This document shows, piece by piece, positions 18,208-45,729 of a DNA stretch of 64,000 nucleotides (its first letter is position 1; each line of letters opens with the position of its first letter). This DNA comes from Phytophthora colocasiae (Eukaryota; Oomycota; Peronosporomycetes; Peronosporales; Peronosporaceae), in NCBI GenBank assembly GCA_018806915.1, contig JAGKQI010000050.1, positions 248,001 to 312,000 on the forward strand, in the 5' to 3' direction. Both the position numbers and the translations under genes were made by a program. The notes under the pieces are model-generated. The model saw nothing but the letters and a program-made list of their open reading frames with translations. It had not been told where the DNA came from and did not search any database.

Positions 18208-18246
18208 CTTGGTTGTGAGTACTGTGTGACAGTCTTGTTCTAAGCT

Positions 18247-19530: not shown

Positions 19531-19562
19531 TTCTGGTCGGAAGTGGTGTAAGTTGCTGAGAG

Positions 19563-20747: not shown

Positions 20748-20755
20748 GACTGCAA

Positions 20756-20771
20756 GAAGATCGCAAAGTGG
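20756..20771 (-). promoter_or_regulatory. Inr/FPR core promoter, PX member 4
   Basis: On the minus strand CCACTTTGCGATCTTC matches YCAYTYY perfectly and most of the flanking element. It is 9 nt upstream of the ATG at 20747, implying a very short leader. Confidence 0.5.
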
Positions 20772-21045
20772 CAAGTCTCACTTTAGCTTTGAAGACACCT
20801 CTTCGCACTACGCCGGGTACATGGGTCCAAAATATCCACACGGAATTGAATTGAATCTCGCCAATGAAGACGTCGCAGCAGAGCTGGTGTAGCTGTGTGG
20901 TACTAGTAAACAGCTTTGTCTCATAGTTGAAGTGCGACTAGCTACAGATCTACCAAGTCTTGTTAGTATGCGTTGAATTGATCTGTTTACTGCTAATAGT
21001 GTACACTTCCCTCTCTCTCTCTCCCTCTCTCTTTCCTGTCATACT

Positions 21046-23666: not shown

Positions 23667-23680
23667 GTGTGCTATAGGAA

Positions 23681-23696
23681 GCGAGTTCTGAAATGG
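23681..23696 (-). promoter_or_regulatory. Inr core promoter, PX member 6
   Basis: On the minus strand CCATTTCAGAACTCGC has a perfect initiator (CCATTTC) and a partial flanking element, 15 nt upstream of the ATG at 23666. Confidence 0.45.
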
Positions 23697-24661
23697 TCAA
23701 GTTGAGGCGTGGCATACGCACGGTTCTGACAGCCGATTTAACCGCTGGCGAGCGCCAATTGGACAACCGGTGGCGTGCAGCTCCGGCCAGACGATTATGA
23801 AAGCTCCGTACCATCACTTTTTCAGAGCCGTAAGCGCAGCGCAGCGATTTTTCTCGGTGGAATGGGATGTGACCATCACGTGTTGACGCCCACGCGTATG
23901 GTCGAGAGCTTCACTCGTCGCTGGATAGCCGCAATAATCCACTCGATCTACTGTTCAACACGGCAAACCCGATCTCGCGCTTGATCAAGCGCTTTGCCGT
24001 TGAGCGGCTCGACTCACGAACCGTGAGTCACGATTCAGAATACCGTGTGCTGCAAACTTGCAACGAAGCGGTAAGACACGGCTTCACTGCGTCCATAATA
24101 CACATACACACCTACAGTAGATTTATTTGGTCTAAAAGTAGCCCCAAAAAGCACGCCGCGTGCAGTTGTACAGATACACTGGAAAGCGCAGGTGGATTGC
24201 AAACACCCAATGCTTTTACCGCAGCCGGGTGGGTGTCTGGCAGGCACACGCGGAGATCGCAGTTTGATCATGGGTAAGACAGCTACATGTATATGGCATG
24301 CACACCTAGTATCCAGCTTTCGTATCAACAAGGCAGGACCAGAACAACATCCTGTGGTCGCAAATGACGACTAGCAATCGATGTGAATGTATGTTGTGCG
24401 TCATTGCACTGCTATTCGTGAAGTATTACTCGCCCCTGTAGCGTATCTTCATGTCGCTGCAGTAGCTGCACGAGTGGCTACACCGACCGGCAACTTGCTC
24501 AGCTCAATCTTTCTTTTTGCATCAAACATCATCATCTTTGCTGCAGCGATTGTGCCAATGTCCTTTTGTCCCGGGTTGCTTCGTTCGCTGACGCCGGGTT
24601 TTGTTTCGCGCTATCCGTAGGATATATCTTCCATCGATATGTGTTTTCATAGGCCCTGGCT
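23697..24661. other. Intergenic within PX array
   Basis: About 1 kb between members 6 and 7 without a recognisable gene, repeat or RNA. Confidence 0.4.
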
Positions 24662-25315
24662 TCATTTGCGGATACGAGAAAGAGTTCGAAGGCTCGCAAG
24701 TCGCCTCCCTAAAGTGTTTGGCAGCTTGAGAAAGCCCTGGCGATGCGGTACTGATAAAGCGAGAGAAGTTCGCGAGAGAGAAGTCCGGTCGCCGGCTAGA
24801 AACGTCGAAAAGGTACTGAGCACACCTCCCATCAGCACCACGCAACCGTGGTTGCCATGTGTAACTAAAGTTGCCTGGATCGTGGTCAGCGCTCGAAGTA
24901 GCGCTGCTCGTCGTCGCTCGGTCTTGAGTGCGCTCGGGGTGAACCTGGCTTGATCCTTGGGGAAATGCTGCTTAACGACGTTGTACAGCCACTTGCACTC
25001 GGATGAGCAGTTGTGTCCTAGCCGGAGTTCCTGTAGCAAATTCTTGCGGAGCTCGCAGTAGTCTTTGAACGGCCGACTCTGACACCACGATGCTGCTCCC
25101 ACCGACAGCTGAGACTTTTGGTGCTTCCTGCGCACTACGAGGTCGAATCGAATGGTTTGGTGAGGCTTGTGACTAATCTCCACGTCGAGCGTGAGGTCTC
25201 GCAGCCATAGCACCACCTCTGGCTCTGCGAGGGGTGTGTGCAGCAGGGTCTTGAGACTCATAGAGGCGGGAGACGCCTGTGATCCTGGCGAAGGGGAATA
25301 CTTGGAACGGAGCAT
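24662..25315 (-). CDS. PX-like protein, array member 7 (no RING)
   Basis: A 217-residue protein from the ATG at 25315 (MLRSKYSPSPGSQAS). An in-frame ATG at 25519 would add 68 residues unlike any relative, so I prefer the shorter form. The PX-like region has VVLWLRDLTLDVEI, CQSRPFKDYCELRKNLL, insert GHNCSSECKWLYNVV, KQHFPKD and VTHGNHGCVVLM. The protein then ends in a short basic tail with no acidic linker and no RING. It is the most reduced member. Function unknown. Confidence 0.72.
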   Translation of the reverse strand: MLRSKYSPSPGSQASPASMSLKTLLHTPLAEPEVVLWLRDLTLDVEISHKPHQTIRFDLVVRRKHQKSQLSVGAASWCQSRPFKDYCELRKNLLQELRLGHNCSSECKWLYNVVKQHFPKDQARFTPSALKTERRRAALLRALTTIQATLVTHGNHGCVVLMGGVLSTFSTFLAGDRTSLSRTSLALSVPHRQGFLKLPNTLGRRLASLRTLSRIRK

Positions 25316-25977
25316 CGAGCGAGGTCTTTTAGATGTGGTGAAATACGTAAAGCGCGACCAGCGGGAGCGAGCGGTTAGACGCACAGCAATTCGAGGCGAG
25401 AACACGCCGCAGAAGTTTGAAAAGTTTCCTAGAGGGCTGACATGTTCAGAGCACAAGCAAAGAAGCCGGGGTTGGACACGTCTGCCAATCCTCCCGCCTG
25501 ACTCGAGTGCGAAGGTCATGGCAACTCAGTCTGTGTGGAACATCCACAGACAGACCTCATCTTAGACCTGGTCGTCCTGTGCAATACTAGTACAGTATGT
25601 GTGTCATGAACCGTAAGTGGCACTTAAAGTGCTGAGCTCGGGACACCAGATTGGATTGAATCAAGTACAGCAGCATTACTGACGAGCGCTGTGGAAACCA
25701 TTGCACGTAGTGGCCATCGGGTGCGTTCGGCACGTTGAAGTGTCACTTCAACTAGATCCATGCAACAAGAAGCACATACGTGTACGACAAGATCAACTGG
25801 GGAACAATGCCATCAGTTCGCGGGCTGTGTGATCGAGACCCACACCGTAGCCGTGGTGAGTAGTAGGTGCATTGCTTCTCTGTAGAGGTAAACTTCTGCT
25901 CAGCGCGCGCCACAGCTTGACCCTAAATAATTCACGTGTTATTAAATTTTGTGTGCAAATAGCTGCCGCTGTTGTCT
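25316..25977. other. Intergenic within PX array
   Basis: Between members 7 and 8. It may hold the leader of member 7 or, if the ATG at 25519 is used, part of its coding sequence. No other gene seen. Confidence 0.4.
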
Positions 25978-26700
25978 TCACTGACCGGGCTCGGACTTGC
26001 AGTATCCGCGGCCGCTCCTGCTGCCATAAAGATCGTCGAATGGCGAGACATCCTCGTTGTACTCCTCGTCACTGCTGCAGTTCGACGCGAAGCTTGCCGA
26101 TGAGTCACGCGTGCTCTGGTCAGAGCTACATCTACTCAGCACCATGACTACATCCGGCAGCTTGGCATTCTCACCCAGAATAAAGGTGGCAAACTCCCTA
26201 CATACATCGCGCACAAGCACATTGCAGCCCTGATTGCCCCGGTTGACCAGCGATGCCTGTAGCGTACGCAGAACACGAGTGAGCGCTTGTCTCCTGGACT
26301 CTGCTGTGCGTAGCGAGTTGATTGCGAGTAGTTTAGGCTTGGGAAAGTGGTTCTTCACTACGGCGTAAAGCCACTTGCACTCCGCAGGGCACGCATGACC
26401 CGGTCGTAGGCGACGCAGCAACTGCTTACGGAAACGTCTATAAGCTTCGAACGGATGGCTAACCGTCCAAACGAGTTCTGGATCCTGGAAACATGGCGGA
26501 GTGTAACTTGCCTGCACCTCATACTGCACTTTCGAGCTTGTGCCCGTACTACCAGCTCTTGTAGTAGTGCGCAGACTTAGCTGTAGGTGCTCGAGCCAGG
26601 CTGTGGCCTCAGGCAGCTCCACTGACCCCGCGCGCTTGCGGTAGTAGCTGGAGAAGTTGATGATCGGCATGCTGCACGTGGCTGTGGAAGATATGCCCAT
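25978..26700 (-). CDS. PX-like protein, array member 8 (no RING)
   Basis: A 240-residue protein. YYRKRAGSVELPEATAWL leads into the PX-like region: VSHPFEAYRRFRKQLLRRL, insert GHACPAECKWLYAVV, KNHFPKPKLL and VNRGNQGCNVLV. The acidic tail (SSDEEYNEDVSPFDD) ends without cysteines, so there is no RING. ATG 26700 is the first in frame. The region is close to members 5 and 9 in the insert and helix motifs. Function unknown. Confidence 0.78.
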   Translation of the reverse strand: MGISSTATCSMPIINFSSYYRKRAGSVELPEATAWLEHLQLSLRTTTRAGSTGTSSKVQYEVQASYTPPCFQDPELVWTVSHPFEAYRRFRKQLLRRLRPGHACPAECKWLYAVVKNHFPKPKLLAINSLRTAESRRQALTRVLRTLQASLVNRGNQGCNVLVRDVCREFATFILGENAKLPDVVMVLSRCSSDQSTRDSSASFASNCSSDEEYNEDVSPFDDLYGSRSGRGYCKSEPGQ

Positions 26701-26738
26701 GGTATAGTTGACTCTGAAGAGCAAGTGACTTCAACGAA

Positions 26739-26755
26739 GCAAAACCGGTAATGAA
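26739..26755 (-). promoter_or_regulatory. Inr/FPR-like motif, PX member 8
   Basis: On the minus strand TTCATTACCGGTTTTGC matches 13 of 16 consensus positions, 39 nt upstream of the ATG at 26700. Confidence 0.4.
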
Positions 26756-27455
26756 GTCAAAGGCCGACCATGCGGCCGACCCCGCACGCGACATGTATGG
26801 TCAAGGTCGGTTAGCCTTGATGGCTGCCACTCTACCCGGTATTGTCCTGTGCTGAATTTTGGCCCAAACATTGTTGGCTAGAATAGCGTGGAATTCTTAC
26901 CAGGTATTTTATGTGGTAGGTGGGTGTGGTGATATGCATGCAGGCACCGCTCAAGCCACACTGTAGAGGCTGCAGTACAAAGATCGATTGCCACTACCAC
27001 AAGGTAGTCCCGTGTATATTGGCTGCATCTATTCGGTAAAACCGCACACAATGTACTAAGCTAAGCAGCCATTCATCGTTGCCATCAGAATGCATGCAGA
27101 GGCTCATTTGCAAGGCAGAAGAGAAAGAAGAAGTACGAATCGAAGCGATTGCTGTCAACGGTGACAACCGTTTTGCGACAGAGGACACAGTTTGGTTCTC
27201 AAGGCTACTTGGCGTCACGTCTTGAAGCCCATTGAAGCGAACGCTAGCTGTCAAAGAGACATTTACACCACTAGGCTTGAAATTCTTTGACCACGAAGGT
27301 TAGCAGGCTGTCGTCTGCGGCTAAAACGATTTCTGCTCAGTTTGTCACGTCACCTTTATCCAAAAAGCGCGACCACAATGGACTACTGCATCTGGTACAT
27401 TTCATGGTTATATCTGCTGAAACATTGCCCTTATATCACCTGGATTTCAAGTTGT
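26756..27455. other. Intergenic within PX array
   Basis: About 0.7 kb between members 8 and 9. No recognisable gene or repeat. Confidence 0.4.
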
Positions 27456-28298
27456 TCACTGGCACAGCGGGCACTTGCCTTCTTCGTCAAGCGTCGGGAG
27501 GATACAAATGTCGTGGAATTGGTGGCCGCAGTCAAATGTGGCGGTGGTGCAGTAAGGCGAAGTGCAAGTAGCAATTTCCTCTAGTGCGTCCAGACTCAGT
27601 CCGCACAGTCCACACTCAAAGTCAGCGAAATCATCGTCGAACTCGAAGTCCAGAACGAGGTTCTCCTCGTCAGATGTGAACGAAACCACCGACGACGTAA
27701 TTTCATCCTCAGTAGCCTCATCCGGTGACGAGCTTGTGGACTTGGTCGAATCTGTGGATGCTGTTGAGGCCGAAGCTGTGTGCTTGAGCTGCTGCACCTG
27801 CTCCTCTTTGCAGTCGGCTAGCAGGAAGGAGGCGAATTCGTGACTGACCTGATCACGAAGGATAGCACAACCGAGGTTGCCATGGTTGACTAGAGAGGCC
27901 TTAACTGTGGTCATGAGACGCAGAAGCGACAGTCGCCGACTCTCAATTGTGCTGGGGCAGTTCTTGCAAAACAAAGAGGCCTTGGGGAAGTGGTTTTTCA
28001 CCACATTCACCAGCCACTTGCATTCCGCGTTGCACTTGTGTCTAGGTTGAAGCGCCTTCACCAGTCGGCGCTGCAGTGCACGGTATTCGTCGAACGTGTG
28101 TGATACTGTCCAAGACGAAGGTTGGAGTCCTGTTCCGGGCGTGTACAAGAGCTGCAACTCGTACAGCGTGTTGTTTCGCTTGACGAGGCTCATCTTCTTG
28201 TTGGCGCACGTGGTCATGTCCAGTGCGAGGTTCTCCATCCACGCTACACTTGCTGGTAGTGCCAATGGCTTAGCACGCTTTAGACTTCCTGCCTTCAT
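27456..28298 (-). CDS. PX-like RING-H2 protein, array member 9
   Basis: A 280-residue protein. LKRAKPLALPASVAWMENL leads to the PX-like region: VSHTFDEYRALQRRLVKAL, insert RHKCNAECKWLVNVV, KNHFPKASLF and VNHGNLGCAIL. A Ser/Thr/Asp-rich linker precedes a C-terminal RING-H2 (CGLC, then an insert containing TSPYC, then CGHQFHDIC ... CPLC). It is the only CKWL-subgroup member with a complete RING, so the RING is probably ancestral to both subgroups and lost in members 5-8. ATG 28298 is the first in frame. Predicted membrane-targeted E3 ubiquitin ligase (inference). Confidence 0.8.
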   Translation of the reverse strand: MKAGSLKRAKPLALPASVAWMENLALDMTTCANKKMSLVKRNNTLYELQLLYTPGTGLQPSSWTVSHTFDEYRALQRRLVKALQPRHKCNAECKWLVNVVKNHFPKASLFCKNCPSTIESRRLSLLRLMTTVKASLVNHGNLGCAILRDQVSHEFASFLLADCKEEQVQQLKHTASASTASTDSTKSTSSSPDEATEDEITSSVVSFTSDEENLVLDFEFDDDFADFECGLCGLSLDALEEIATCTSPYCTTATFDCGHQFHDICILPTLDEEGKCPLCQ

Positions 28299-29715: not shown

Positions 29716-30742
29716 TTACGCGAGCTGAGTGCGCTCGTGCGCAGCGTCATAGTCGACGAAAGGTCCCTCAGCAATCGCATCAGGATGCTTGTTTCCCACT
29801 CCAATTTTCAGGTGGTTCCAGTTGACCGTGCTCTTGAGTCCAGGGATCTGGTACAAGTCGCGCAAGTACTACGAGGCAAACAAAGAGAAGCATTAGATCG
29901 AATACAGTACACAGCAACAAGAATAATGATACATAGTTGCTTACCTCCACAACGTTCTGATAATCCGTCAAGTGCTTCACGTCCGTCTTCTGCTGGTACA
30001 CATCGAGACGAATGAGCGTGTGGAACAAACGCACATCAGCCTCCGTCACGCCCTCGCCCACGAGGTACCTCTTCTTCGACAGCAGCTCATTCAGTTTCGC
30101 GAGAGCTTCATATGCCTTAGCCTCAGCCTCAGCCGCAGCTTCGGGCGTGGGAGCAAAGATCTTCTTGAAGAAACCCATAGACACTTCCGCCACAATACCG
30201 TCATCGGCAGCATCGATCTCGGCACGCAACGACTCCGGATACAAATGCACGTTCGATGGCACGAGCTCCCGGAAACCAGCGTCCAACGTCCGCAAAATGC
30301 CAGAGGACTCCTCCGACACGATCGTTCCCGTCTTCTTGTCCCACAACACTGGCACGGAGAACGTGCGCGGTGCAGGGTCCACCTTCTCGTACAGGTCGCG
30401 CACGAACGCCACGTGGTTCACCGTGTCGGGGATGCAGTCGTCTGTGGGGTACGACTTCCCATTGGCGCCGACCATCGTGGGTGACGTGGTGGGGTCCACG
30501 AACACCCATCCCTTGTGCTCGTCAGTAGCATCGTCCGGTTTGGTCTTTTGGAAAATGGGGTGTGCCACGGACAGACCAATGGCGTCCTGGAGCCCCAGCA
30601 GGTTTCGGGCTGATAGTGCGCGGCAGGCGAACGGGCACGAGTACGTAACGTAGAGGTGGTATCGTCCCTTTTCGGCGGGGAACTGTGCGTCGGCACGAGG
30701 TTCGATCTGGGAGTTGTAGGGGGCAGGCTTGGTGGTGGCCAT
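29716..30742 (-). CDS. ECM4-like (Xi-class) glutathione transferase 1 (2 exons)
   Basis: Glutathionyl-hydroquinone reductase family, a cytosolic thioredoxin-fold enzyme that reduces glutathionyl-quinones. Exon 1 is 30742-29945 and exon 2 is 29868-29716; the 76-nt intron has donor GTAAGC and acceptor CGTAG, joining NVVE to YLRDLYQIPGLKSTV in frame. The product has 316 residues. The catalytic Cys is C36 in YVTYSCPFACR (bacterial and yeast relatives have CPWA). The GST N-domain also shows VPVLWDKKTGTIVSEESSG, and the C-terminal helical domain carries YLVGEGVTEADVRLFHTLIR. It is head-to-head with copy 2 at 31305; exon 1 is almost identical between them, exon 2 is not. A perfect core promoter lies 19 nt upstream. 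Confidence 0.9.
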
Positions 30743-31304: not shown

Positions 31305-32252
31305 ATGGCCACCACCAAGCCTGCTCCCTACGCCTCCCAGATCGAGCCTCGTGCCGACGCACAGTTCCCCGCCGAAAAGGGACGATACCACCTCTACGTT
31401 ACGTACTCGTGCCCGTTCGCCTGCCGCGCACTATCAGCCCGAAACCTGCTGGGGCTCCAGGACGCCATTGGTCTGTCCGTGGCACACCCCATTTTCCAAA
31501 AGACCAAACCGGACGATGCTACTGACGAGCACAAGGGATGGGTGTTCGTGGACCCCACCACGTCACCCACGATGGTCGGCGCCAATGGGAAGTCGTACCC
31601 CACAGACGACTGCATCCCCGACACGGTGAACCACGTGACGTTCGTGCGCGACCTGTACGAGAAGGTGGACCCTGCACCGCGCACGTTCTCCGTGCCAGTG
31701 TTGTGGGACAAGAAGACGGGAACGATCGTGTCGGAGGAGTCCTCTGGCATTTTGCGGACGTTGGACGCTGGTTTCCGGGAGCTCGTGCCATCGAACGTGC
31801 ATTTGTATCCGGAGTCGTTGCGTGCCGAGATCGATGCTGCCGATGACGGTATTGTGGCGGAAGTGTCTATGGGTTTCTTCAAGAAGATCTTTGCTCCTAC
31901 GCCCGAAGCTGCGGCTGAGGCCGAGGCTAAGGCTTATGAAGCTCTCGCGAAGCTGGACGAGTTGCTGTCGAAGAAGAGGTACCTCGTGGGCGAGGGCGTG
32001 ACGGAGGCCGATGTGCGTTTGTTCCACACGCTCATTCGTCTCGATGTGTACCAGCAGAAGACGGACAAGCACTTGACTGAGTACCACAACGTGGAGCAGT
32101 ATGTGCGTGATCTGTACCAGATCCCTGGGCTCAAGAGCACGGTGAACTGGGACCACCTGAAAATTGGCATGGTAAACAAGGCCCCACACGTTGCTGCGGA
32201 AGGACCTTTTGTCGACTACGATGCAGCTCACGATCGTGCTCAGCTGGCGTAA
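31305..32252 (+). CDS. ECM4-like (Xi-class) glutathione transferase 2 (intronless)
   Basis: A 315-residue enzyme of the same family as transferase 1, with the catalytic Cys in YSCPFACR at residue 36. The first ~260 codons differ from copy 1 at only a few positions. After QQKTDKHLTEY the two diverge (NVEQYVRDLY here, NVVE plus intron plus YLRDLY there). This copy has no intron at the position where copies 1 and 3 both have one, so it has most simply lost it. It is transcribed away from copy 1. Likely role: glutathione-dependent reduction of quinones or xenobiotics, plausible in defence against plant phenolics (inference). Confidence 0.92.
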   Translation: MATTKPAPYASQIEPRADAQFPAEKGRYHLYVTYSCPFACRALSARNLLGLQDAIGLSVAHPIFQKTKPDDATDEHKGWVFVDPTTSPTMVGANGKSYPTDDCIPDTVNHVTFVRDLYEKVDPAPRTFSVPVLWDKKTGTIVSEESSGILRTLDAGFRELVPSNVHLYPESLRAEIDAADDGIVAEVSMGFFKKIFAPTPEAAAEAEAKAYEALAKLDELLSKKRYLVGEGVTEADVRLFHTLIRLDVYQQKTDKHLTEYHNVEQYVRDLYQIPGLKSTVNWDHLKIGMVNKAPHVAAEGPFVDYDAAHDRAQLA

Positions 32253-33962: not shown

Positions 33963-33966
33963 TTAA

Positions 33967-33980
33967 CCCCTCCAAACCGG
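33967..33980 (+). repeat. PiggyBac left terminal inverted repeat
   Basis: CCCCTCCAAACCGG directly after TTAA. It is the exact reverse complement of 39401-39414. Confidence 0.9.
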
Positions 33981-33982
33981 TG

Positions 33983-34034
33983 TGCTGCATAAGGCAGCAT
34001 TATGATTCTGCTTATGCTGCATTTATGCAACATA
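33983..34034. repeat. Left subterminal TGCTGCAT repeats
   Basis: Several direct and inverted copies of a TGCTGCAT/ATGCAGCA core (GTGCTGCATAAGGCAGCATTA and TTATGCTGCATTTATGC). The same core recurs near the right end, which suggests transposase-binding sites. Confidence 0.6.
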
Positions 34035-34272
34035 AGCAAAAATAGACTTGGAGTTTGTATGGAGTGTATCGTCCCATGTCAAGAGGCATACAAACTTTAA
34101 GAGAAACTAAGACTCGTTTCTGTTCATTGGCGATCCTGTACCATCTCTGGAACGGGAGGGGTAGGGCGGAATATTTAGACTTTCAAAAAGGCTGTTCGAG
34201 AGGTATCCGCAGATCGCGCTCCCCGATCATGACATTGGTAAGGTTTTGGATGCCGACATTGCCCACCGCCAC

Positions 34273-34288
34273 TCATTTCAGATTTTCG
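34273..34288 (+). promoter_or_regulatory. Oomycete Inr/FPR core promoter inside the transposon
   Basis: TCATTTCAGATTTTCG matches about 14 of 16 consensus positions. It sits 31 nt upstream of the transposase ATG at 34319, the same spacing as in host genes. Confidence 0.6.
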
Positions 34289-34318
34289 CGCGCCAGGACC
34301 TCAAGCAGACCAAGAGCG

Positions 34319-37300
34319 ATGTCGCGGCGTAACGTCGTGCCTGTCCAGGAGGTCACGGCACACGACCTGAACTTCAGGTCCGTATGGCGGGAGCTGAAGG
34401 GCGAAGGGTGGTACAGAAAGCCCCCCACCAAGGAGAAGCCTGGACGATCGCTATCGCTACGTGCCGCCGGGCGGAAGCATGGACGGCGTCAAAGGAACGG
34501 ACTTCTTTCTCGGGGAGCAAGAGGTTTTGGAGTTCTACGCCAAAGGTAAGATTAGTTGACGTGTGTGTGACTCGTGCTGGCTATCTAACATTACTGATGA
34601 TGAGTACAGGGCTGCGGGACCGAGCTCAAACCCGCCAGCCATCGCTCCAAGAAGCCGCTGACGCCTAACTTGCTGCTGCGGCCGCTCTGGCTGAGAGAAC
34701 ACACGGCCCCATGATCGAGGCCGCTGCTGCCCGTGAGCGAAATAGCACTGCAGACGCGCCTGTGGAACCTGCAGAAGCGCCGGTGGATCCATCTACACCA
34801 GTTCTGCCCCAACGGCAAAGCCGTGTACGACGCTCTCTGTGTCTACCAGAGTCAACTGCTGCTGAGACCCCGTCTCGGTCGTCCCAGCGCCAAAGGTCCC
34901 CACTGATCGCGACTTCTCCTCACGTCGAGAATAGCGCCGAAATGGACGATGACGTGGACTTTGTAGAGTCTGTTGACACCGCCAATCAATCCGTGCAGTC
35001 TGAGGACGATGACGAAGAGTCAGCGTACGTTGCCACGCCTACTCCAAGCGAGACCCCCCTTTATGCTGACGACTCTATGCAAGTGAGAAGTGGTGATTAA
35101 CGCGGTAGGGAGCATGTTGTGCTGCATATTGTGTTGCATGTCGTGCTGCATATTTTTTTTATAAAAAATAATTGTGCTGTATTTTTATCTGACATAGTAC
35201 CGTGTGATCTGTAGATGAGGGCGGTGACCAAGGAAGCTCTACTCTTGGATCACAGCTGATTGCCGACAACGAAGATTCATTGAATGAGGTTGGTAATGAA
35301 GAAGACAATGCAGACTATGGAGCCATGGAGTCCGGTGATGATGCAGAAAAAGATGACATTGCCGATGAAGATGATCCTGACGGTGCTCAAGAAGGATATT
35401 ACCTACCGGACGATGATGACGACCTAGAAATCACCGAGAGCGAGATTGCTGCTGAAGTATTATTTGCGGAAAAGTTTCTCGACAGCTTTGGGGGTGCGAA
35501 TGATGTGCTTGCTGGGAATTTGAAGAACACTGTCTTGCGAGATATGGCAGTTAATGGTTGGGAGGCCGTTGAGGAACCCGACACACATGACCACATGATG
35601 ATGCCGTACGAGCCCGTGGACAACACAAGCAGTTATCCTGGTTTGCGTCAAGGTTACTCCGGTCCTACAGCTGAAGCTCTTCGAAATGCTGACTCCCCAG
35701 TAGCGTTGTTTTTCTTTTTCTTGCCGGTGGTGCTGTGGCAGCACATTGCAGTGTGCTCAAATCAGTATCACCGGGAGATGCTTCCCCTACGTGTCGACGA
35801 GACGTATAAGCGCTACCGGCGCAAGCAGCGCTTGAACCCAGACCTGCCAAAGAAAACCAAGCGCGATATACGGCATGAGCTGGAAGGTATGAAGCCTATA
35901 CACCCCCACGAGTTGTGCCGTTTTGTGGGACTCCTTATTGCTCGTACAATCGCCCCAAACCGCGAAAAGTTGGCGAACCATTGGAAGATCACAGATGAGG
36001 GTGCCATTTCGAGAGGCGCTTTCGGCTCTGTACTGCGGCGTGACCGCTTCATGGAGATATCACGGAATCTCCACTTCAACCCAAACGATGACCCGCGGGC
36101 TCGCACAGACAGAGCCTGGAAAATTCGCAAGGTCGTAGAGGTATTGCAGCGGACATTTGCGCGTGGGTATGTGGCACCTGCGCACTTGGCGTTTGACGAA
36201 GCGATTCTCCCGAGCCGGTCCTCGTTCAACAAGATGAGAGTGTACATGAAAGACAAGCCTCATCGGTGGGGTACCAAGCTCTTCATGTTGTGCAGTGCCG
36301 TGACGGCTTACTGCATCCGGTACGTTTTTTTTTACGTCGTTGATTTTCTTATGCTGCACAATGCGAATTATACTTACATATATTGTTTCTGTTTATCTGC
36401 ATACATGCAGCTTTGAAGTGTACTGTGGGAAGAAAGAGCACTCCAGCGATGCACACAAGACTGACATGCAGTCAGGACCGGCAGCTGTCGTCAGAAACCT
36501 TTTAGCGGTGTTCGGACCCGAGGCACGAAGGCTAGGCATGCGCCTGGTTGTCGTTGACCGGTTTTACACGTCAGTGGCGTTGGCTATCCAGCTACTTCTC
36601 ATGGGGTTCTATTGCGTCGGTACCATCATGACGAATCGCTTAGGGTACTGCAAAGCTGTTGTGAGAGAAAAAGAAGTCACGTCCAGCCTCGATACCTCGT
36701 GGCTCATTCAAAATGGCTCGTTCTAAGCTAGTGACGAACATGGCAGCTATCAGTTGGTGGGATTCCCGGCCGGTTCACTTCCTGTGCACTGGAGGTAGTC
36801 TCGATATCGATCGGGTTATTCGTCAAGACGGTGCGACGCAGGTGGAAGTGCCGTGCCCTCGGGTGGTGAAGGATTACCACGCCTTCATGGGAGGCGTGGA
36901 CGTCCATGACCAGCTGCGCTTGCAGCGTTACTCGCTGCAAAGAGCTTTGCGCTTCCGCAAGTACTATAAGTCGCTGGTGCTAGGCCTGATTGACCTAGCA
37001 ATTGTCAATGGATACATAGTTCACAAGGCCTACCACAAGCACAAGACATCGCGCCCCCTCAGTCACGTAAAGTACATGAAAAACTGCATTTGCAGCTCTG
37101 CCAACTGCAGTCCAGCGATATGTACGAAGGCAACACGTTTGGAATCCAGCAACCAGCCACCCCCAGCACACCAGCGCCTCCCGTACCCCCCGCAGCAGAA
37201 GAAGTACATGTTCCCCAGCAGCTGGAAAAATGGCGCGACCAGACCACCCAGAGGAAACGACGTCAACGCGCTTGCAAGGTGTGCTCCTATCTGCATCCAG

Positions 37301-37587
37301 ATGGTGTGCGCGCCGCAACAAGCAAGTTTTGCTGTCGCTCTTGCAACAAAACGGGTCCTATCTACCTGTGCATGAAGCCGCGTCGCAAGATTCGCGAGAT
37401 CTCGATGACGTGCTGGGATATCTGGCACCGAGAGTGGTTGAATAGTAGTCTTGCTCCTGTCGACACTGGAAGAACGATTCGTGTGCGTCGCGAAGACGAT
37501 ATGGAGATGAGTGAGACGCCGACAGCTCCTGCTACACCGGCTACCCCGGCTAGCAAGAGACGCCGCACTACGCACGATGCTGCATAA
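34319..37587 (+). pseudogene. PiggyBac transposase, multiply disrupted
   Basis: From ATG 34319 an N-terminal DNA-binding-type domain reads FRSVWRELKGEGWYRKPPTK, then shifts frame (about 34435) to LDDRYRYVPPGGSMDGVKG and DFFLGEQEVLEFYAK, ending at a GTAAG donor (34546). After the intron the frame holds a stop near 34666, then an acidic region (34711-35100). The DDE core runs from about 35280: FDEAILPSRSSFNKMRVYMK with the first catalytic Asp, a 91-nt intron at 36320-36410, RLVVVDRFYTSVAL with the second Asp, a shift in an A-run near 36668, then FMGGVDVHDQLRLQRY with the third. A further shift near 37080 leads to a C-terminal Cys-rich zinc domain (ACKVCSYLHPDG, FCCRSC) typical of piggyBac transposases. 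Family identity is firm; the gene is not functional as read. Confidence 0.85.
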
Positions 37588-37595
37588 GTAATAAG

Positions 37596-37717
37596 CATTT
37601 GGTATAGTTTGTTCAAATGATTTGCCACTTTTCAACTTAACGGATTCCCTGTTGCTGTTGCCGTGCCAACTGTCCATTTGGTATAGTTTGTTCAAGTGAT
37701 TTGCCACTATTCAACTT
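37596..37717 (+). repeat. 43-bp direct repeat, 79-bp period
   Basis: A block containing GGTATAGTTTGTTCAA and ATTTGCCACT occurs at 37596-37638 and again at 37675-37717 with two differences. It lies just past the transposase stop, between the two convergent genes. Confidence 0.75.
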
Positions 37718-37807
37718 GAGCTGCTAAAGGAAACTTACAGAAGCATTCAACAGCTGGATCTAAAGGCGAGACCATGCTACACGATACACTTGTTCAAAGA
37801 TGGTATT

Positions 37808-38881
37808 TCAGTTAGCATTACGTTTGTATATCCACATGTTCGACGTTGACGTCCAACTGACTGGGACAGCTAACACCTTCCACAGCTTCCACCGTGCACA
37901 AAACACTGCTCGACAAAATGCCTGATGCCTCGGACATATTTGTTCGCCAAATATAACCACTCGCGCATTCTCATGCAGGCCTAGCTGTTCTTCAATCTGG
38001 ATCTTGGCACTGTCTTCAAAAAGGCGATGGTGCGCTAAAATTACGGTTGCTTGACTAAATGGTCCCTCGAAAGCAAGCAGCACGGTGCTAGCGTCTCCAG
38101 GAAGTAAATGTACCTTCGTGTGATAGTTTTGCATCAGCAAGTCCTTCTCCATTAGCTCTATTCCACGAAAGAGTACTTCGTCTCGCACTTCGATACCGTA
38201 GCATTCGGATGCTGGGGTCTGTAAAGCTACTTGAGCAACCACATTACCAAGACCGCAACCAACGTCGAGGAATACATCGTGCGTTTCAATATCTCCAATA
38301 GCTTCAATCACAGCTGCCACTCCGGCGGGAAGTATTTCACCAGCGTTAAGGTGTCGTTTTCCAGATTTTTGGCGAATATCTGCCTTCCTCACTGGTGCAA
38401 ACAGGCGTTCAACGGCTTGCATTGCTGCATCAGGGGTCATTACCCCAGGACCAGCACCACCTACATCTTCCCCATCAGCATATTCATGACCTTCTCCCAC
38501 CCCAGCACCAGCAGCGCCGTCGCCGTCGCCGCCTTCTCCCACTCCAGCACCAGCACCAACAGCGCCGTCGCCGTCGCCGCCTTCTCCCACTCCACCACCA
38601 GCAGCGCCGTCACCGTCGCCGCCTTCTTCCACACCAGTAACGCCTGATGCGCCTTGTGTCGTAGCACACTTGAAAAAAAAGCATGGGGGGAAGTCCGCGA
38701 GAGAGCTACCGTAGGTCTTCTTCAGTGCGTGAAGGCGCCAACGAAGGTCCGCAGCGGAGTGCTTCGCGCACCTCATCCTGCGACGCACATCAGACCACGA
38801 TATACGCGAACCACGCCGTTCATACACAGCGGCCAGCTGCACAAGCCTCTTGTCTTGACCGACTGAAAATTTTGATCGCAT
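37808..38881 (-). CDS. DOT1-like methyltransferase with N-terminal SANT/Myb-like domain, transposon cargo
   Basis: An intact 357-residue gene inside the piggyBac element. Residues 1-70 (FSVGQDKRLVQLAAVYERRG, ISWSDVRRRM, LRWRLHALKKTYG) look like a SANT/Myb-type DNA-binding fold. A Gly/Asp/Glu-rich repeat linker (84-131) follows. Residues about 175-357 resemble the DOT1 histone H3K79 methyltransferase catalytic domain: GEILPAGVAAVIEAI, the SAM-binding FLDVGCGLGNVVAQVALQ (D206 to N213), an acidic YGIEVRDE strand, PGDAS, and a C-terminal VSWTSTSNMWIYK like the VSWT block of DOT1. The usual NN motif of DOT1 is HH here (ILAHHRLF, 281-288), so catalysis on H3K79 is uncertain. ATG 38881 opens the frame. 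It could modify chromatin around the element or protect it from silencing (speculation). Confidence 0.78.
   Translation of the reverse strand: MRSKFSVGQDKRLVQLAAVYERRGSRISWSDVRRRMRCAKHSAADLRWRLHALKKTYGSSLADFPPCFFFKCATTQGASGVTGVEEGGDGDGAAGGGVGEGGDGDGAVGAGAGVGEGGDGDGAAGAGVGEGHEYADGEDVGGAGPGVMTPDAAMQAVERLFAPVRKADIRQKSGKRHLNAGEILPAGVAAVIEAIGDIETHDVFLDVGCGLGNVVAQVALQTPASECYGIEVRDEVLFRGIELMEKDLLMQNYHTKVHLLPGDASTVLLAFEGPFSQATVILAHHRLFEDSAKIQIEEQLGLHENARVVIFGEQICPRHQAFCRAVFCARWKLWKVLAVPVSWTSTSNMWIYKRNAN
38489..38632 (-). repeat. Coding minisatellite in DOT1-like linker
   Basis: Three imperfect in-frame copies of a unit of about 42-50 nt encode GEGGDGDGA-type repeats followed by Ala/Gly/Val stretches. 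Copy number is likely to vary between strains. Confidence 0.75.
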
Positions 38882-39221
38882 AGCAGCTTCACCGATGAGG
38901 AGAATTACTTTGTTTCAGTATGCATTTTGGTAAAGCACTTCGAGTCAGTGACAAATCGTGCCATGAAGTGTATCCACCTCGAGTGCAATCATTGATGCAG
39001 TCTACTGATCAGGTCACTCATTTGCACTTTGTATAGAACAGAAAACGCACGAATAATTAGCCTGCTGATTGCGATACCTGTAGGGGTGACACCCGTTCCT
39101 ATCTACCTCATTTTTGTATGGGAAGTTTTAGTGTCTAGTTTTCTGAAATCGAGAATGTCTACGACTCACAAAAAAGAACGCGGCAGCCCTGGCACTGTTC
39201 AGAGCCTGGCTATGCTGTGTC

Positions 39222-39382
39222 GCATAATGCAGCTTTAGCCTGCTGCAAATGGCTTGTTATGCAGCATTGCGACTGTTTAGGATTGTCTATGGTCAACTGC
39301 ACTCGTCCTTACCCGAACACCATTCCCTACCCAATCCCTTTATATACAAACGTCAAGTCTAATTATGCTGCATATGCAGCAT
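39222..39382. repeat. Right subterminal TGCTGCAT-type repeats
   Basis: Scattered copies of ATAATGCAGC, TTATGCAGCATT and a near-palindrome ATGCTGCATATGCAGCAT at about 39365-39382. They match the core seen at the left end. Confidence 0.6.
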
Positions 39383-39400
39383 AAAAAATCAAAATCGGCT

Positions 39401-39414
39401 CCGGTTTGGAGGGG
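39401..39414 (-). repeat. PiggyBac right terminal inverted repeat
   Basis: CCGGTTTGGAGGGG directly before TTAA (39415-39418), the exact reverse complement of the left end. Confidence 0.9.
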
Positions 39415-39418
39415 TTAA

Positions 39419-39646: not shown

Positions 39647-39987
39647 TGTTACCAATTGGTCTATGTTTGATCAGTATGGGCAAGATACTTTCATAGTAGC
39701 CGAAATTGGCAGGAGAAAACGTTTGCCAGGAATCGAGAAGGTGAGAGAAAGCTGTGAGGTTTCACAGTCTGCATATCTACATAGTTCTATAACTAGCAGG
39801 CACTGGTAGTAGTTTCAAAACGACTGCCAAAGTTGCCTCTTCATCACTCTGAAAAAACACGATAACAGAGCAATACTGTCCTCATCCTTGCTTCGTTCCT
39901 GCATTCAACGTAGCTTCCTCAGCTTAAAGGATCTGGTGGTCATCCTAACGTCTTCTTCAGGAGTGGGTGCCACCATATTTTGCAACA
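39647..39987 (+). repeat. 5' LTR (341 bp)
   Basis: Starts TGTTACCAATTGG and ends TTTTGCAACA. I found no difference from the 3' LTR. Confidence 0.93.
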
Positions 39988-40018
39988 TTGTAGCCTTAGT
40001 CAAGGAACTACAGCAAGA

Positions 40019-41354
40019 ATGAGTGATAGTCACATGGAAGAAAGTTCCAGTTCAACGGAGCTGGTACCTCCGCTTACAGCTGAAGAAGTAATATCGCTAC
40101 GTGGCCTTCTGGCGGAGTTCCATACAATGCAAACCAAGCTCGAAAAGCTTAGTGCTGATCAAGTGGGAATAACCGAGGGAATGGCAGAATACGCACTGAA
40201 GAGTGACGAGAAGCACATGGCTAGTGCTCAGATCATGAAGGACAACCAACAGGTACTCCAACAACTTGCGTCTCAAAACCCAAACGGCTTCACAGCACAA
40301 GGAAGTACGCTTAAGTACGATTGAAACCCGCGTCGGTATGCTAACGTCACAAATAATGGAGTTGAGAAACGAGATGAGTCTCGCTATTGAGAACATCAAC
40401 ACTCTCAAAGACATGGTAAACAAAATTGAGCCAGGCTCGTTGGTATTTGGCTCAGATGATCTTTACCCTGAGTGGGACGTCGCCGGGCCTGCGCCGGATG
40501 AAGCTTTGAATGTTTTCTCACCGGCGGACCTGGAGAAACAAGTCGAGAAATGTCTGAAACAAAAGGAAACACCTGTATACGGCGGAGACGACTCCGACGA
40601 TATTGAGGTATACGCCTTAAATATGATGACTTGGTATGCAGCGTATGGGTTATACTTCAAAAATCCCCAAGTGGATTCTCGAGTTGGCCAGCTCATGATG
40701 AACCATACGCGAGGCAAAGCAAAACATTGGTTGCTTCGCGATTACAAAGGCCCTCGGACATGGACGTCAATGATTAAAGGGATGCGCAACCGCTTTGTCA
40801 CCAAGGCAAAAGAAGAAGACCTTGTCGCGAGCTTCTTCGATTGTAAACAGGGAACTAAGTCGCTGGATATGTACATCGAGGAATTCGTGCGTCTTGGTAA
40901 CACGGACGATGTCTCTGAGCAGTATAAAATGATATTGTTCAAAAAAGGCTTGAAATCGTCTAAATTGCGCGAACTTCTCCAAGTGCGTGAATTTGACTCC
41001 CTTAGTGATCTCCTTGACGGAGCTAGAGGGTTAAATCCGAAAGAAAACGACAGTGAAACGGTAAAAAACACGACAAAATCGACCAAGAAAACGACACTGC
41101 CGGAGCCAAAACCACGAAGTCGAACAAATCAGCGTTGCTCGTCGTCGCGCTGCCTTGAAACAGGCCACACAGCAGATAAGTGCTGGGCGTTGCACCCCGA
41201 ATTGAAACCGCAATGGCTTTTGAATCGCGAAAGAGTTGGAAACAATGTCGCCTCGGCGCATGAAACTCAGGCACAATCATCTGACAGCAAACTTTGGGAA
41301 GTGCTAACAGCTATTCAGGCGGATCTGTCGAAAATCAAAGCTGATTTAAACTAA
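40019..41354 (+). pseudogene. Retrotransposon gag, one frameshift
   Basis: ATG 40019 opens a coiled-coil-rich N-terminus that ends at 40324. The adjacent frame continues from about 40305 to the stop at 41354. The second part carries the retrotransposon gag core (HWLLRDYKGPRTWTSMIKGM, SFFDCKQGTKSLDMYIEEF) and a zinc-knuckle-like C/H motif (CLETGHTADKCW) with an unusual C-x4-C spacing at its start. Its last codons contain the slippery site for pro-pol. Confidence 0.8.
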
Positions 41355-41382
41355 CTGGTTCTGGAGATGGCGTCCCAGGACC
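41345..41382 (+). promoter_or_regulatory. -1 programmed ribosomal frameshift signal, gag to pro-pol
   Basis: T TTA AAC (41345-41351), a canonical X-XXY-YYZ slippery heptamer, is in phase with gag and directly abuts its TAA stop (41352-41354). Five nt later an 8-bp stem can form: GGTTCTGG (41357-41364) with CCAGGACC (41375-41382), one G-U pair, 10-nt loop. Loop bases CGTC (41371-41374) could pair with GACG at 41393-41396 to give a pseudoknot. The -1 frame is open and leads into the protease. Confidence 0.75.
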
Positions 41383-44300
41383 TACCACAGCCGACGACAG
41401 TCTCATTTCTTGGGTTTTTGATCCAGGGAAGACAGACAACATAAAATATTTCACAGAGAAACAAACGTCAGCAACAGACTGGAACCGATACCTAATTAAA
41501 AAGGTTAGCTGTGTTTGCAATGACGGGATTTTCCGGGGTTCTGCATTCTTCGATGAAGGGGCCGATTTCTGTGGAGTTAGTGAAAATTTCTTGAGGCAAA
41601 ACGGATTAATGGATTTAGTTGTGGATCGAGGAAATTTCACGGTCACGTATGGAAATGGAAAGATGGAGAGTATTCCGAATCGCACCATTTCGTTGAGTAT
41701 CTTCGTGGATGAGATGTCTGCATTTGATTTTGATTTCAATGTGTGCCTTATTCCTAATGGATGCGACTTGATGATGGGAGTTCCGTGGAAACGGAAAATG
41801 AAGCCCATAATTGATCTGGGCGACCGACAGAGTGTACGACACCGATCACTTTGTCAAATTAGTGGTGAAACATGGTAAGAAACCACCTTACAAGGCAGTG
41901 CGGCGGCAACAGGATATTGAACTACGAACGCCTGTCTTAAAAATCAAAAATCGACGACAACAGCGGCCAACCAAGCTGCATATACTACGAGGTCTGACTG
42001 AAAAGCAGTTCCACTTCAGCGAAAAGCATGGAATGACCAGTTACATCTCGATGAAACAAGCAAAACGAATTGTCAAAAAGAAGGCTTTCGAATTTTTGGT
42101 AGTATTACCTCAGAAAACGATCAATGCAATTTACACAGCGTGGCAAAATGGAAGTGAAGTTCTCCCGGTGTATCTTGATGAGATTGTATCGAACAAACAG
42201 CATATGAATGCGGCCGGGACCAAGACGCGTGAAAAGTCAAAGCGTCACGCAACAACGGATCAGGACTCGTTCAAATCGAACCCGGCATACCCCTTGATCA
42301 AGAAGTACGAAAAAATATTCCGTACACAACTACCTAAAGGGCCCCCGGTTCACGGAGAACACGAAATGGAATTAAACCCTGGTCATGGTGCTATTTTCCG
42401 TCCGCAGTGGCGATTAAGCCCTGAACAAACTAAAACTTTGCGTGAATGGTTAAGAGAGATGCTTGCTGCTGGACTTATTCGACCTAGCATTTCACCTCAT
42501 GGTGCACCGACTTTCTGCATTAGGAAGCCGGTGGGGTGGCGTATTGTGCATGACTACCGCGCGATGAATGAACACACGATACGACAATCAACGCCTATGC
42601 CAAGGAAAGATAACATTTTAGATCGGATGGCTGGATGCTGCTGGTTCAGTTGTTTTGACTTGTTGTCCGGTTATTACCAGATACGCATGAGAGAAAAGGA
42701 TATTCCGTTAACAGCGTTTCAAACTCCGGACGGTCTTTTCGAGTACATTGCTGTACCTATGGGTTTAAGTAATGCCCCTGCAACTTTTAATCGTATTGTA
42801 GCTGGGATTTTTAAGGATTTGGCAGACACAGTGGCAACATACTTTGATGATATCTACGTGTTTACTCGCGGGACAGACGTCAAAATGCATTTAGAAGCTG
42901 TCGAACGTGTCTTTCGACGTTGCCAAGAACGGCAACTGTACCTGAAACTAGCTAAGTCAACTATATGCAGCCACGAAATCCCTTGTCTGGGCGATTTCGT
43001 AGGCGTTCGAGGTGTCAGGATCGACCCTGATAAAGTGGCAGTGATTCGAGACTGGCCTACTCCTCGCAGCGTTAAAGATTTACAGTCATTCTTGGGCACG
43101 ACGGTTTACGTCCAGCGATTCTGCAGTCACTACCTGAGATCAGTGCTCCATTATTCAATTTAGTAAAATCGAAGGCAAAAGTCCTCGTCTGGACCCCAGT
43201 GGCACAGGCAGCTTTTGACAAGCTCAAAATGGCGTTATCTCAAACGCCGGTGTTGGCACTTCCTGATTTTTCTCGTCCCTTTCGTATTCGAACGGATGCT
43301 TCCCGGTTTGCCATAGGAGGTGTTCTTTTCAGATGTCATCCTGTTCAGAGGAGGTCGAGCAGCAACAACGAAATACAAGTTCTGGCATCGAACACCCCAT
43401 AGCTTTTACGGGAAGAAAACTCACATCAGCCGAACTAAATTATCCTACTCACGAACAGGAGATGTTAGCAATTATCCACTGCTTGAATATTTGGCGTGTG
43501 TACCTTATTGATGGAGGGTGCACTGTGGAGACCGATCACCGTTCATTAGAGAAAGTCCTAACGCAAAAAAGTATTAATCGCCGTATCTGCCGCTGGTACG
43601 ATCAACTCGCAGATTATAATTTGAAATTCAGCTATATTCCGGGCGAGACAAACACAGTAGCAGACGCCCTTAGTAGACGCAGCGATTTTGAAATTGATTT
43701 CCTGGGCCAGAAAAATAAGCAACTGTACGCAGTGAAACAATTAGCACCGCTATCGTTGATGGATCAAGTTCGCAGAGCTCAAGACACTCAGAAAGAAGTG
43801 TTACACAGCTTGAAGAACAAGCAGAAGCCGAATGTTTCTCATGCCGAACGTTTTCGCTATTCTGAAATCGAGGATATGATTTACTACGACATGAATGGTG
43901 CCTCTCGCGTGTGGATACCAGCTGAGAGTATTGAAATCCAAAATGCCATTCTGTGGGAGCTGCATGATAGTGCTCTTAGTGGTCACCCAGGAATTGAAAA
44001 AACGATTCATGCCGTTCAAGAGAGATTTTATTGGCGTAACATGGCGCGGAAGATTACACAATACGTCAAGACTTGTCAGGCTTGTCAGCGAAGTAAAGGG
44101 AGAACAGGAAAGGCACCTGGGTGTTTGCGTCCACTGGAAGTAGCAACAGCAAGGTGGGAATCTATCGGAATGGATTTTGTTACTGGACTTCCGAAAAATA
44201 AGAAGGGAAATGATGCGGTTGTTGTGATTGCCGATCGTCTAACAAAACGGGCGCATTTTATTGAAACGAATACGACAATCTCAGCAGAGGAATTCGCTTC

Positions 44301-45368
44301 ACTGTTCCTAAACCACTACGTGCGATATCATGGGATTCCACGCGACATCACTTCTGATAGAGATTCTAAGTTTACTTCGAAGTTCTGGCAGGAATGTGCT
44401 AGGTTAACCGGCACCAAGTTGAGGATGGCTGCTGCATATCAGCAGAGAACGGACGGACAAGTAGAGCGTATCAACGCGAATTTGGGCTTCTTATCTTAGG
44501 AGCTACGCGAGTGGATACAAGAACGATTGGGCAGACTACTTGGCATTGGCCGAGTTCGCATACAACAGGCATTATCAAGCCAGTATTCAAATGACACCAT
44601 TTTTCGCTGACTTAGGATACAATCCTCCGATGCCGGTGCACAATGAAGTTCTAACTCCAGAAAAGGCGAAGGACGCATCCACGACTTTCCTTTGCATATG
44701 GAAAAATTCTGCGTGAGCTTCAAGCAAAAATCCGCGACGTTGCGCGAAATATGAAGTTACAGTTTGACAAAGGAAGGCGTGATCAAACCTTCCAGCTAGG
44801 GGATATGGTACTTGTATCTACAAGAAATTTGAGTGTGGAAAATGCTGGTGCACTCAAGCGGAAATTGGCACCCAAATGGATTGGACCGTACGAAGTAGTT
44901 GAAAAACAACATGGGGGTACCTCATATCGATTGAATTTACCATCGCAAGTAACGCTATACCCGGTATTTCACACTATGAATCTAAAGCCTTTTCGGAAAG
45001 ACGATTCTCAATCTCGACGAAATGTTGTACCTACAGTGCGATTGAAGGACGGAGACGAAGGACATTTGATCGAGGATATTGTGGAGCATCGACTAAGTAA
45101 GGAAGGGCTGGATGAATACAAGTGCAAGTGGGTCGGTTCGAGCGATGACTACACTTGGGAACCAGTGGCTAATTTACAGTCGGTACCTGGTCTGATCAAG
45201 GGATTTCTAAGGCGACTAAATGGAATGAACCCGCGGGGTTCCAAACGATTGCAAGGAAAACGTGCTGGTATACTATACGTTACTCACGACGACCAAGCAG
45301 GTTCCTGGGCGGGCGGATTATCTACCATGACAATTCATCGAAGTGTGTCTCCTTTCCACACGACGTAG
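41352..45368 (+). pseudogene. Retrotransposon pro-pol with integrase and chromodomain, several frameshifts
   Basis: In the -1 frame after the slippery site comes an aspartic protease (FFDEGADFCGV; the usual D-S/T-G-A reads DEGA). One extra base near 41816 shifts into the reverse transcriptase (41811-43163), which has GWRIVHDYRAMN, FSCFDLLSGYYQIRM and the catalytic YFDDIYVF. Shifts near 43128 and 43325 separate the RNase H region (FRIRTDASRFAIGGVLF; FTGRKLTSAELNYPTHEQE). Integrase follows with an HHCC zinc region (WELHDSALSGHPG; CQACQRS) and core (GMDFVTGLP; DITSDRDSKFTSKFW). Further shifts near 44480 and 44690 precede the last segment, which ends in a chromodomain (EYKCKWVGSSDDYTWEP). Not functional as read. 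Confidence 0.85.
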
Positions 45369-45388
45369 GTCTCTTCCAAGGGAGGTCG

Positions 45389-45729
45389 TGTTACCAATTG
45401 GTCTATGTTTGATCAGTATGGGCAAGATACTTTCATAGTAGCCGAAATTGGCAGGAGAAAACGTTTGCCAGGAATCGAGAAGGTGAGAGAAAGCTGTGAG
45501 GTTTCACAGTCTGCATATCTACATAGTTCTATAACTAGCAGGCACTGGTAGTAGTTTCAAAACGACTGCCAAAGTTGCCTCTTCATCACTCTGAAAAAAC
45601 ACGATAACAGAGCAATACTGTCCTCATCCTTGCTTCGTTCCTGCATTCAACGTAGCTTCCTCAGCTTAAAGGATCTGGTGGTCATCCTAACGTCTTCTTC
45701 AGGAGTGGGTGCCACCATATTTTGCAACA
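45389..45729 (+). repeat. 3' LTR (341 bp)
   Basis: Same length and, by eye, same sequence as the 5' LTR; followed by GTTAA (45730-45734). Confidence 0.93.

What the first reader, a model, noticed from the sequence alone, without database searches (positions are those of the whole stretch)
33963..39418. PiggyBac element with an intact DOT1-like methyltransferase as cargo
Perfect 14-bp termini and TTAA duplications enclose both a piggyBac transposase and, on the other strand, an open 357-codon gene with a SANT/Myb-like domain and a DOT1-type SAM-binding domain. A transposon carrying its own putative histone methyltransferase could influence the chromatin state of its insertion site. I do not know of a described piggyBac element with such cargo.
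Basis: partly seen in the sequence, partly recalled or inferred. Interest (0 to 1): 0.88.

Follow-up and report, generated by a model that had tools for sequence, protein, structure and literature searches.

The report
PiggyBac transposons carrying DOT1-like methyltransferase genes
Several families of a cut-and-paste transposon in an oomycete carry, besides their transposase, a gene for a probable DNA-binding protein fused to a DOT1-like (histone-methyltransferase-type) enzyme, which suggests that these jumping genes bring their own tool for altering chromatin.

Summary

The gene is no one-off capture. In this genome 92 of 142 DOT1-like loci lie within 6 kb of a piggyBac transposase; for the first 66, random placement gave 5-6. 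In one distant piggyBac lineage 45 of 51 transposase loci examined have it. In the window's own lineage only subfamily A does: 7 of 105 loci, plus one fragment beside the probable host DOT1. The gene has very probably moved between piggyBac lineages.

A sister subfamily lacks the gene. My searches found no paper on DOT1 in piggyBac; the nearest precedent is SET genes in Phytophthora Harbinger and MuDR elements. Function is inferred.

The parts
33963..39418 (.). piggyBac element, subfamily A, 5456 bp including both TTAA
   Evidence: TIR pair; ends shared with other copies
33963..33980 (+). TTAA duplication and left 14-bp terminus
   Evidence: genome pattern search
39401..39418 (-). right 14-bp terminus and TTAA duplication
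34304..35100 (+). 5' part of the transposase gene: an N-terminal module (FRSVWRELKGEGW, like segments in C9, C100 and C3 transposases) and an acidic region, split over frames
   Evidence: ORFs; similar segments by eye
35325..36416 (+). transposase ORF with the first half of DDE_Tnp_1_7; its last codons look like an intron read through
   Evidence: PF13843 4.1e-25; intron by eye
36361..37587 (+). rest of the transposase over three ORFs (36361-36726, 36713-37375, 37120-37587): second half of DDE_Tnp_1_7 and a cysteine-rich C-terminus; contains a frame break
   Evidence: PF13843 6.2e-8 and 1.4e-6; frame break not shared by six other A copies and one B copy; cysteine pattern by eye
37808..38881 (-). 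SANT-DOT1-like gene, 357 codons, open, convergent to the transposase
38675..38881 (-). SANT/Myb-like three-helix part (residues 1-69)
   Evidence: model helices 7-23, 29-36, 43-57; weak Myb matches in relatives
38490..38637 (-). three repeats of about 45 bp coding the Gly/Asp-rich linker
   Evidence: low pLDDT residues 73-143
37811..38455 (-). DOT1-like methyltransferase domain (residues 143-357)
38246..38266 (-). SAM-binding motif DVGCGLG (residues 206-212), its D and three G invariant in alignment A1
38027..38032 (-). HH where DOT1 has NN (N241-N242 of human DOT1L)
37898..37936 (-). C-x-R-H...C...C motif (C316, R318, H319, C323, C328), shared with the probable host DOT1
   Evidence: invariant in alignment A1

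Best explanation
SHOWN: this is subfamily A of a piggyBac lineage. Its second gene codes a SANT-DOT1-like protein and lies on the opposite strand between the transposase and the right end. The same kind of gene is a regular component of a second, distant piggyBac lineage and sits beside the transposase in a third. PROBABLE: the gene has moved between piggyBac lineages. INFERRED: the element expresses the protein; its SANT/Myb-like part brings it to the element's own subterminal DNA or to nucleosomes; there it methylates chromatin (H3K79 in relatives that keep the NN motif) or, in the window's subfamily, binds with changed or lost catalysis. This keeps the element expressed or accessible against host silencing: a self-directed anti-silencing module. 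The structural part is about 0.95 likely, the anti-silencing mechanism about 0.4; the number below is for the statement as a whole.
For: 5 of 5 symmetric terminus pairs carry both genes. 66 of 142 DOT1-like loci within 6 kb of a transposase against means of 5.0 and 5.8 in two sets of 500 random draws, maxima 13 and 14; 92 of 142 with the third lineage. 45 of 51 loci in the C67/C100 lineage. C100/C83 homology runs exactly from TTAA to TTAA around both genes, C67/C19 to within one base. DOT1 fold and conserved SAM motif. dN/dS 0.13-0.19 between subfamilies and 0.27-0.57 in most closer comparisons. The SANT-like part is present in the element-borne full-length proteins aligned but not in the probable host DOT1. 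The window's lineage has a transposase only 22-30% identical to the others yet a DOT1-like protein 27-35% identical, and has the gene only in subfamily A.
Against: No binding, methylation, expression or chromatin data. The window copy has HH for NN. Two near-identical-terminus subfamilies move without the gene, so it is not needed for transposition. Within subfamily A itself dN/dS is 0.64-2.2 on 3-9 changes, so no constraint is visible there. H3K79me2 goes with silenced, not active, TEs in the stramenopile Ectocarpus (PMC12477816). 50 of 142 DOT1-like loci are not near a transposase that I found. The tree conflict for C80 is well supported, but a compromise placement is not firmly rejected (p 0.14 for the DOT1 tree, 0.044 for the transposase tree).
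Confidence: 0.5

Rival explanations
1. Self-restraint or suppression of rivals: the protein puts a repressive H3K79 methyl mark on its own or competing elements, lowering damage to the host.
For: In Ectocarpus H3K79me2 is associated with intact TEs, small RNAs and lower expression (PMC12477816); DOT1 is expanded in brown algae and proposed as a repressive pathway (PMC13076208).
Against: Brown algae are distant from oomycetes and lack marks that oomycetes may have; nothing in the sequence tells the sign of the effect.
Confidence: 0.22
2. Non-canonical target: the protein methylates the transposase, a repair factor or another protein, or is a catalytically dead DNA-binding regulator, at least in the window's subfamily.
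For: HH instead of NN in the window copy, P. fragariaefolia P0003 and P0006; S or H at the first N in 2 of 13 other element proteins of this genome in alignment A1. A shared Cys-His motif next to the active site is absent from the human DOT1L alignment shown.
Against: First N kept in 11 of those 13 and both in 6 of 13; the SAM motif is invariant in A1.
Confidence: 0.18
3. Neutral or selfish passenger: captured once long ago and carried along without benefit to the element.
For: Related subfamilies live without it; broken copies are common (stops or frame breaks in several of the subfamily A copies); no constraint visible among A copies.
Against: 45 of 51 loci in one lineage keep it; dN/dS well under 1 between subfamilies; presence in three transposase lineages.
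Confidence: 0.09
4. Chance neighbours or nested insertions of unrelated repeats.
For: One pair looks like chance: a transposase fragment 2.6 kb from the probable host DOT1.
Against: Repeated order and spacing, and shared ends in independent copies; 5-6 expected against 66 seen.
Confidence: 0.01

Closest known systems
HarbingerS and MuDR transposons of Phytophthora with SET histone methyltransferase genes (Kojima and Jurka 2014, Repbase Reports; seen only as cited in a passage of PMC12730594)
   Same: DNA transposons of oomycetes with a histone-methyltransferase gene beside the transposase
   Different: SET fold and other transposon superfamilies; here DOT1 (Rossmann) fold, SANT-like fusion, piggyBac. 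The Repbase paper on oomycete DNA transposons could not be read and may list these elements.
Fungal DNA transposons with TET/JBP dioxygenase (PMC12730594, passages)
   Same: A chromatin or DNA-modifying enzyme carried by diverse DNA transposon lineages and passed between them
   Different: Acts on DNA methylation; other host group; other enzyme
piggyBac and P elements with a DEDDh nuclease (Kapitonov et al., seen only as cited in PMC3627910)
   Same: A second gene in piggyBac elements
   Different: A nuclease, not a methyltransferase
VANDAL (MuDR) anti-silencing proteins of plants (passage of PMC12730594 citing Hosaka et al. 2017)
   Same: Element-encoded protein that counters silencing of its own family: the proposed working principle
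   Different: No enzyme homology; activity is shown there, only inferred here
SETMAR, human SET-mariner fusion (passage of PMC3408717)
   Same: Histone methyltransferase domain linked to a transposase
   Different: Host-domesticated fusion protein, not cargo of mobile copies
Expanded gene families associated with PiggyBac-like TEs in Phytophthora megakarya (PMC7341134, passages)
   Same: Multi-copy genes tied to PiggyBac-like elements in an oomycete
   Different: Described mainly as hypothetical proteins; the word methyltransferase does not occur in that paper

Membership tests
piggyBac superfamily (the window element) | TTAA target duplication and terminal inverted repeats | tested here: met
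piggyBac superfamily (the window element) | DDE_Tnp_1_7 transposase (PF13843) | tested here: met
   three ORFs over the cut-off; frame broken in this copy
piggyBac superfamily (the window element) | C-terminal cysteine-rich domain | tested here: inconclusive
   cysteine pattern by eye in ORF 37120-37587; no Pfam match
piggyBac superfamily (the window element) | precise cut-and-paste excision | not testable with these tools
   needs an excision assay
DOT1 family (by fold and sequence) | PF08123 over the curated cut-off | tested here: met
   41.9 bits against 23
DOT1 family (by fold and sequence) | DOT1 catalytic-domain fold | tested here: met
catalytically canonical H3K79 methyltransferase | NN motif (N241 of human DOT1L) | tested here: not met
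   HH in the window copy; alignment with 1nw3. That N241 is catalytic is recalled.
catalytically canonical H3K79 methyltransferase | methylation of H3K79 on nucleosomes | not testable with these tools
   needs an enzyme assay
SANT/Myb-like domain | three-helix fold and Myb/SANT profile match | tested here: inconclusive
   three confident helices; only sub-threshold Myb matches, in relatives; no Myb structure listed, where the DOT1 part fills the lists
element-encoded anti-silencing system (VANDAL-like) | protein binds the element's own DNA and relieves silencing | not testable with these tools
   needs binding and chromatin data

The most novel reading that the evidence does not exclude
A mobile SANT-DOT1 module is an exchangeable, selected component of at least three piggyBac transposase lineages in oomycetes. 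Each copy is aimed by its SANT-like part at its own family's ends to write (or block) H3K79 methylation there: an element-borne counter-defence that has radiated, with some subfamilies (the window's) drifting to a non-canonical active site.
Probability: 0.35. Interest if true: 0.9.

Novelty: new variant of a known kind. Interest (0 to 1): 0.77.

Why it matters
Transposons that encode chromatin modifiers are known (SET, TET/JBP), but my searches (open-licence PMC papers only) found no piggyBac with a DOT1-type gene. Repbase Reports could not be read and may hold such entries. The genome offers a natural experiment: two subfamilies with near-identical termini and about 73%-identical transposase DNA, one with the gene and one without, plus dozens of DOT1-bearing loci of other lineages. 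If the protein marks its own element, this would show whether H3K79 methylation in oomycetes protects or silences transposons. It may also explain many of the DOT1-annotated proteins of Phytophthora; their genome context was not tested.

Tried and rejected
Chance proximity: rejected by 500 uniform and 500 rotation draws. The draws used 74.4 Mb, the contigs with hits, some contig lengths being approximated by the last hit.

One-time host capture: rejected. That C28 is the host DOT1 is inferred from its best PF08123 score, NN motif and lack of the SANT-like part.

A remnant of the gene in subfamily B: none in the one B element read (lowest tblastn E 0.12).

First structure model (10 sequences, mean pLDDT 46): too weak, replaced by a 27-sequence model (79). 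The SANT-like part alone was not searched for structure.

A fused transposase-DOT1 protein in databases: not among the 2 hits.

Ends of the C36, C3 and third-lineage elements: no TTAA inverted pair found in the stretches read. For C36 and C3 I therefore show neighbourhood of the two genes, not enclosure.

A control with SET genes could not be run. Gene context in other species could not be tested: the tool holds no relatives of this genome.

Limits: transposase searches scored only part of their candidates (116 of 1055; 112 of 760; 54 of 1052), so counts are lower bounds and fractions refer to the loci scored. For one search ten second pieces of loci already listed were dropped from the 115 rows (105 left), and the 60 rows were merged by hand to 51 loci. 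DOT1-like loci are merged to 142; many are fragments. (48 of 108) was an earlier, smaller count. Two notebook entries differ from the report: says 0 of 16 asymmetric pairs (one search prints 17) and more than 9.5 kb for the third-lineage repeat (bear out at least 9.3 kb).

Full report
OBSERVATION. The element at 33963-39418 is confirmed: TTAA at both ends and perfect 14-bp inverted termini, the only such pair in window 30-44 kb. Copies on C8, C20, C22, C57 and C21 share its ends (three rows overrun or fall short by 1-6 bases), and the flanks printed for C8, C20 and C22 differ. The transposase (PF13843) is on the + strand in several ORFs. Its 3' half has a frame break not seen in the seven other copies compared, six of subfamily A and one of B, so this copy's transposase is probably dead; the corresponding part is open to the end in the copies on C20 and C22. 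The 357-codon gene on the - strand is open and hits PF08123 at 1.1e-10.

GENOME. The genome (92.5 Mb, 105 contigs) is unnamed. It has 135 PF08123 matches. Merged this gives 142 loci; 66 lie within 6 kb of one of 203 transposase loci, against 5.0 (max 13) and 5.8 (max 14) in two sets of 500 draws. Of the 66 pairs 43 are convergent, 20 on the same strand and 3 divergent.

LINEAGE OF THE WINDOW. Of 23 facing pairs of CCCCTCC termini, 5 of 5 symmetric ones contain transposase and DOT1-like gene (one is 22 kb long). 0 of 17 asymmetric ones (CAAACC/CAGACC) contain the gene: 8 have a transposase, 9 are short and have none. One further pair (CTCTCC variant) has a transposase and no such gene. The B element read in full matches A at 73% over the transposase and at a 62-bp block near the right end, and lacks about 1.6 kb in between, where A has the gene. 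Of 105 transposase loci of this lineage 8 have a DOT1-like gene within 6 kb: 7 of subfamily A, and a fragment beside the probable host DOT1 on C28.

OTHER LINEAGES. The 14-mer TTAACCCTTTCGCG has 78 exact matches and 0 for the pattern read backwards. C100 and C83 share sequence exactly from TTAA to TTAA around both genes; C67 and C19 share the two ends that were read, to within one base, with different flanks. Of 16 facing pairs 11 are over 5 kb, and 9 of these 11 hold a DOT1-like gene (three of the 11 are 19-27 kb); the other 5 pairs are 349-352 bp. 45 of 51 loci of this transposase lineage have the gene within 6 kb; three of the six others have one at 7-21 kb. Where aligned over more than 100 residues their transposases are 22-30% identical to the window's, their DOT1-like proteins 27-35%. 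A third lineage is a repeat of at least 9.3 kb with 28 copies matching at least 2.8 kb of its transposase part. It holds a transposase (PF13843 2.5e-21), a chromodomain ORF (2.3e-9) and a 327-aa DOT1-like gene (3e-11); its ends were not found. With it, 92 of 142 loci are near a piggyBac transposase. The other 50 were not explained one by one; some are fragments.

EVOLUTION. In a tree of 28 DOT1-like proteins the probable host DOT1 stands on a very long branch (3.9), and the window copy sits with five others, from this genome, P. capsici, P. fragariaefolia and P0006, at 100/100. C80's DOT1-like protein groups with C36, C3 and C55 at 100/100; placing it with C67, C100, C82 and C31 is rejected (p 3.6e-7), but placing it with those and the window copy is not (p 0.14). 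Its transposase groups with C67, C100, C82 and C31 at 100/100; placing it with C36, C3, C55 and C44 has p 0.044, with C36 alone 0.002. I read this as exchange of the module, with a compromise placement not firmly excluded. That the gene is confined to subfamily A in the window's lineage favours a gain there; loss in all the others is possible. dN/dS is 0.13 and 0.19 between subfamilies (dS near saturation), 0.27-0.57 in twelve closer comparisons, and 0.64, 1.1 and 2.2 between the three A copies, which differ by 3-9 changes; four pairs had no synonymous change.

MECHANISM. Shown: presence, position, fold, conservation, repeated association. Probable: exchange. Inferred: targeting by the SANT-like part, chromatin methylation, anti-silencing. 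Repression is a serious rival because H3K79me2 goes with silenced TEs in Ectocarpus (PMC12477816) and DOT1 is expanded in brown algae (PMC13076208).

LITERATURE. I saw passages found by term search in PMC12730594, PMC12477816, PMC13076208, PMC3627910, PMC4460409, PMC3408717, PMC7341134 and PMC8204020. Of all other papers I saw only search listings and abstract starts. No paper describing a DOT1 gene in piggyBac showed up; of these, the listings were capped, and one search showed 25 of 30.

VERDICT. A real, multi-family phenomenon: a new variant of a known kind (transposon-borne chromatin enzymes), function open.

Noticed in passing
window 39647-45688: Ty3-like LTR retrotransposon (reverse transcriptase PF00078) with two identical 300-bp LTR stretches (39647-39946, 45389-45688), starting 229 bp to the right of the piggyBac: a young insertion.
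   Followed up: partly
L091, L090, L082 (C57:2603000-2612504); a copy at about C72:112626-122986, same contig but outside the window: A repeat of at least 9.3 kb with 28 near-identical copies that carries a piggyBac transposase, a chromodomain ORF, a 282-aa ORF without Pfam match and a DOT1-like gene, with short repeats at its left side that recur in inverted pairs about 3.6 kb apart beyond it. Ends not found.
   Followed up: partly
C36:993045, C50:846455, C58:1448628, C82:82469, C94:525457 (G000): Five 349-352-bp pairs of TTAACCCTTTCGCG termini: probable MITEs of the DOT1-bearing lineage. Likewise six 1634-1635-bp pairs with CAAACC/CAGACC termini.
   Followed up: no
L079 (C28:745777-747237) and C28:749031-749702: The probable host DOT1 gene has a fragment of a piggyBac transposase of the window's lineage (79% identical) about 1.8 kb upstream of its start.
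   Followed up: no
alignment A1; window 37898-37936: A C-x-R-H...C...C motif next to the DOT1 active-site region is invariant in element-borne and probable host DOT1 proteins of this genome but not in the human DOT1L alignment shown: a possible oomycete-specific metal site.
   Followed up: no
window 17365-28298: Tandem array of related genes on the - strand; of two tested, both hit PX just below the cut-off (0.0011, 0.003) and one hits RING fingers. The others look alike by eye.
   Followed up: partly
window 29780-30742 and 31305-32252; 5831-7507 and 11661-13283: Two nearly identical glutathione-transferase-like proteins on opposite strands, and two long nearly identical permease-like protein stretches on opposite strands (by eye): recent inverted duplications or gene conversion.
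   Followed up: no
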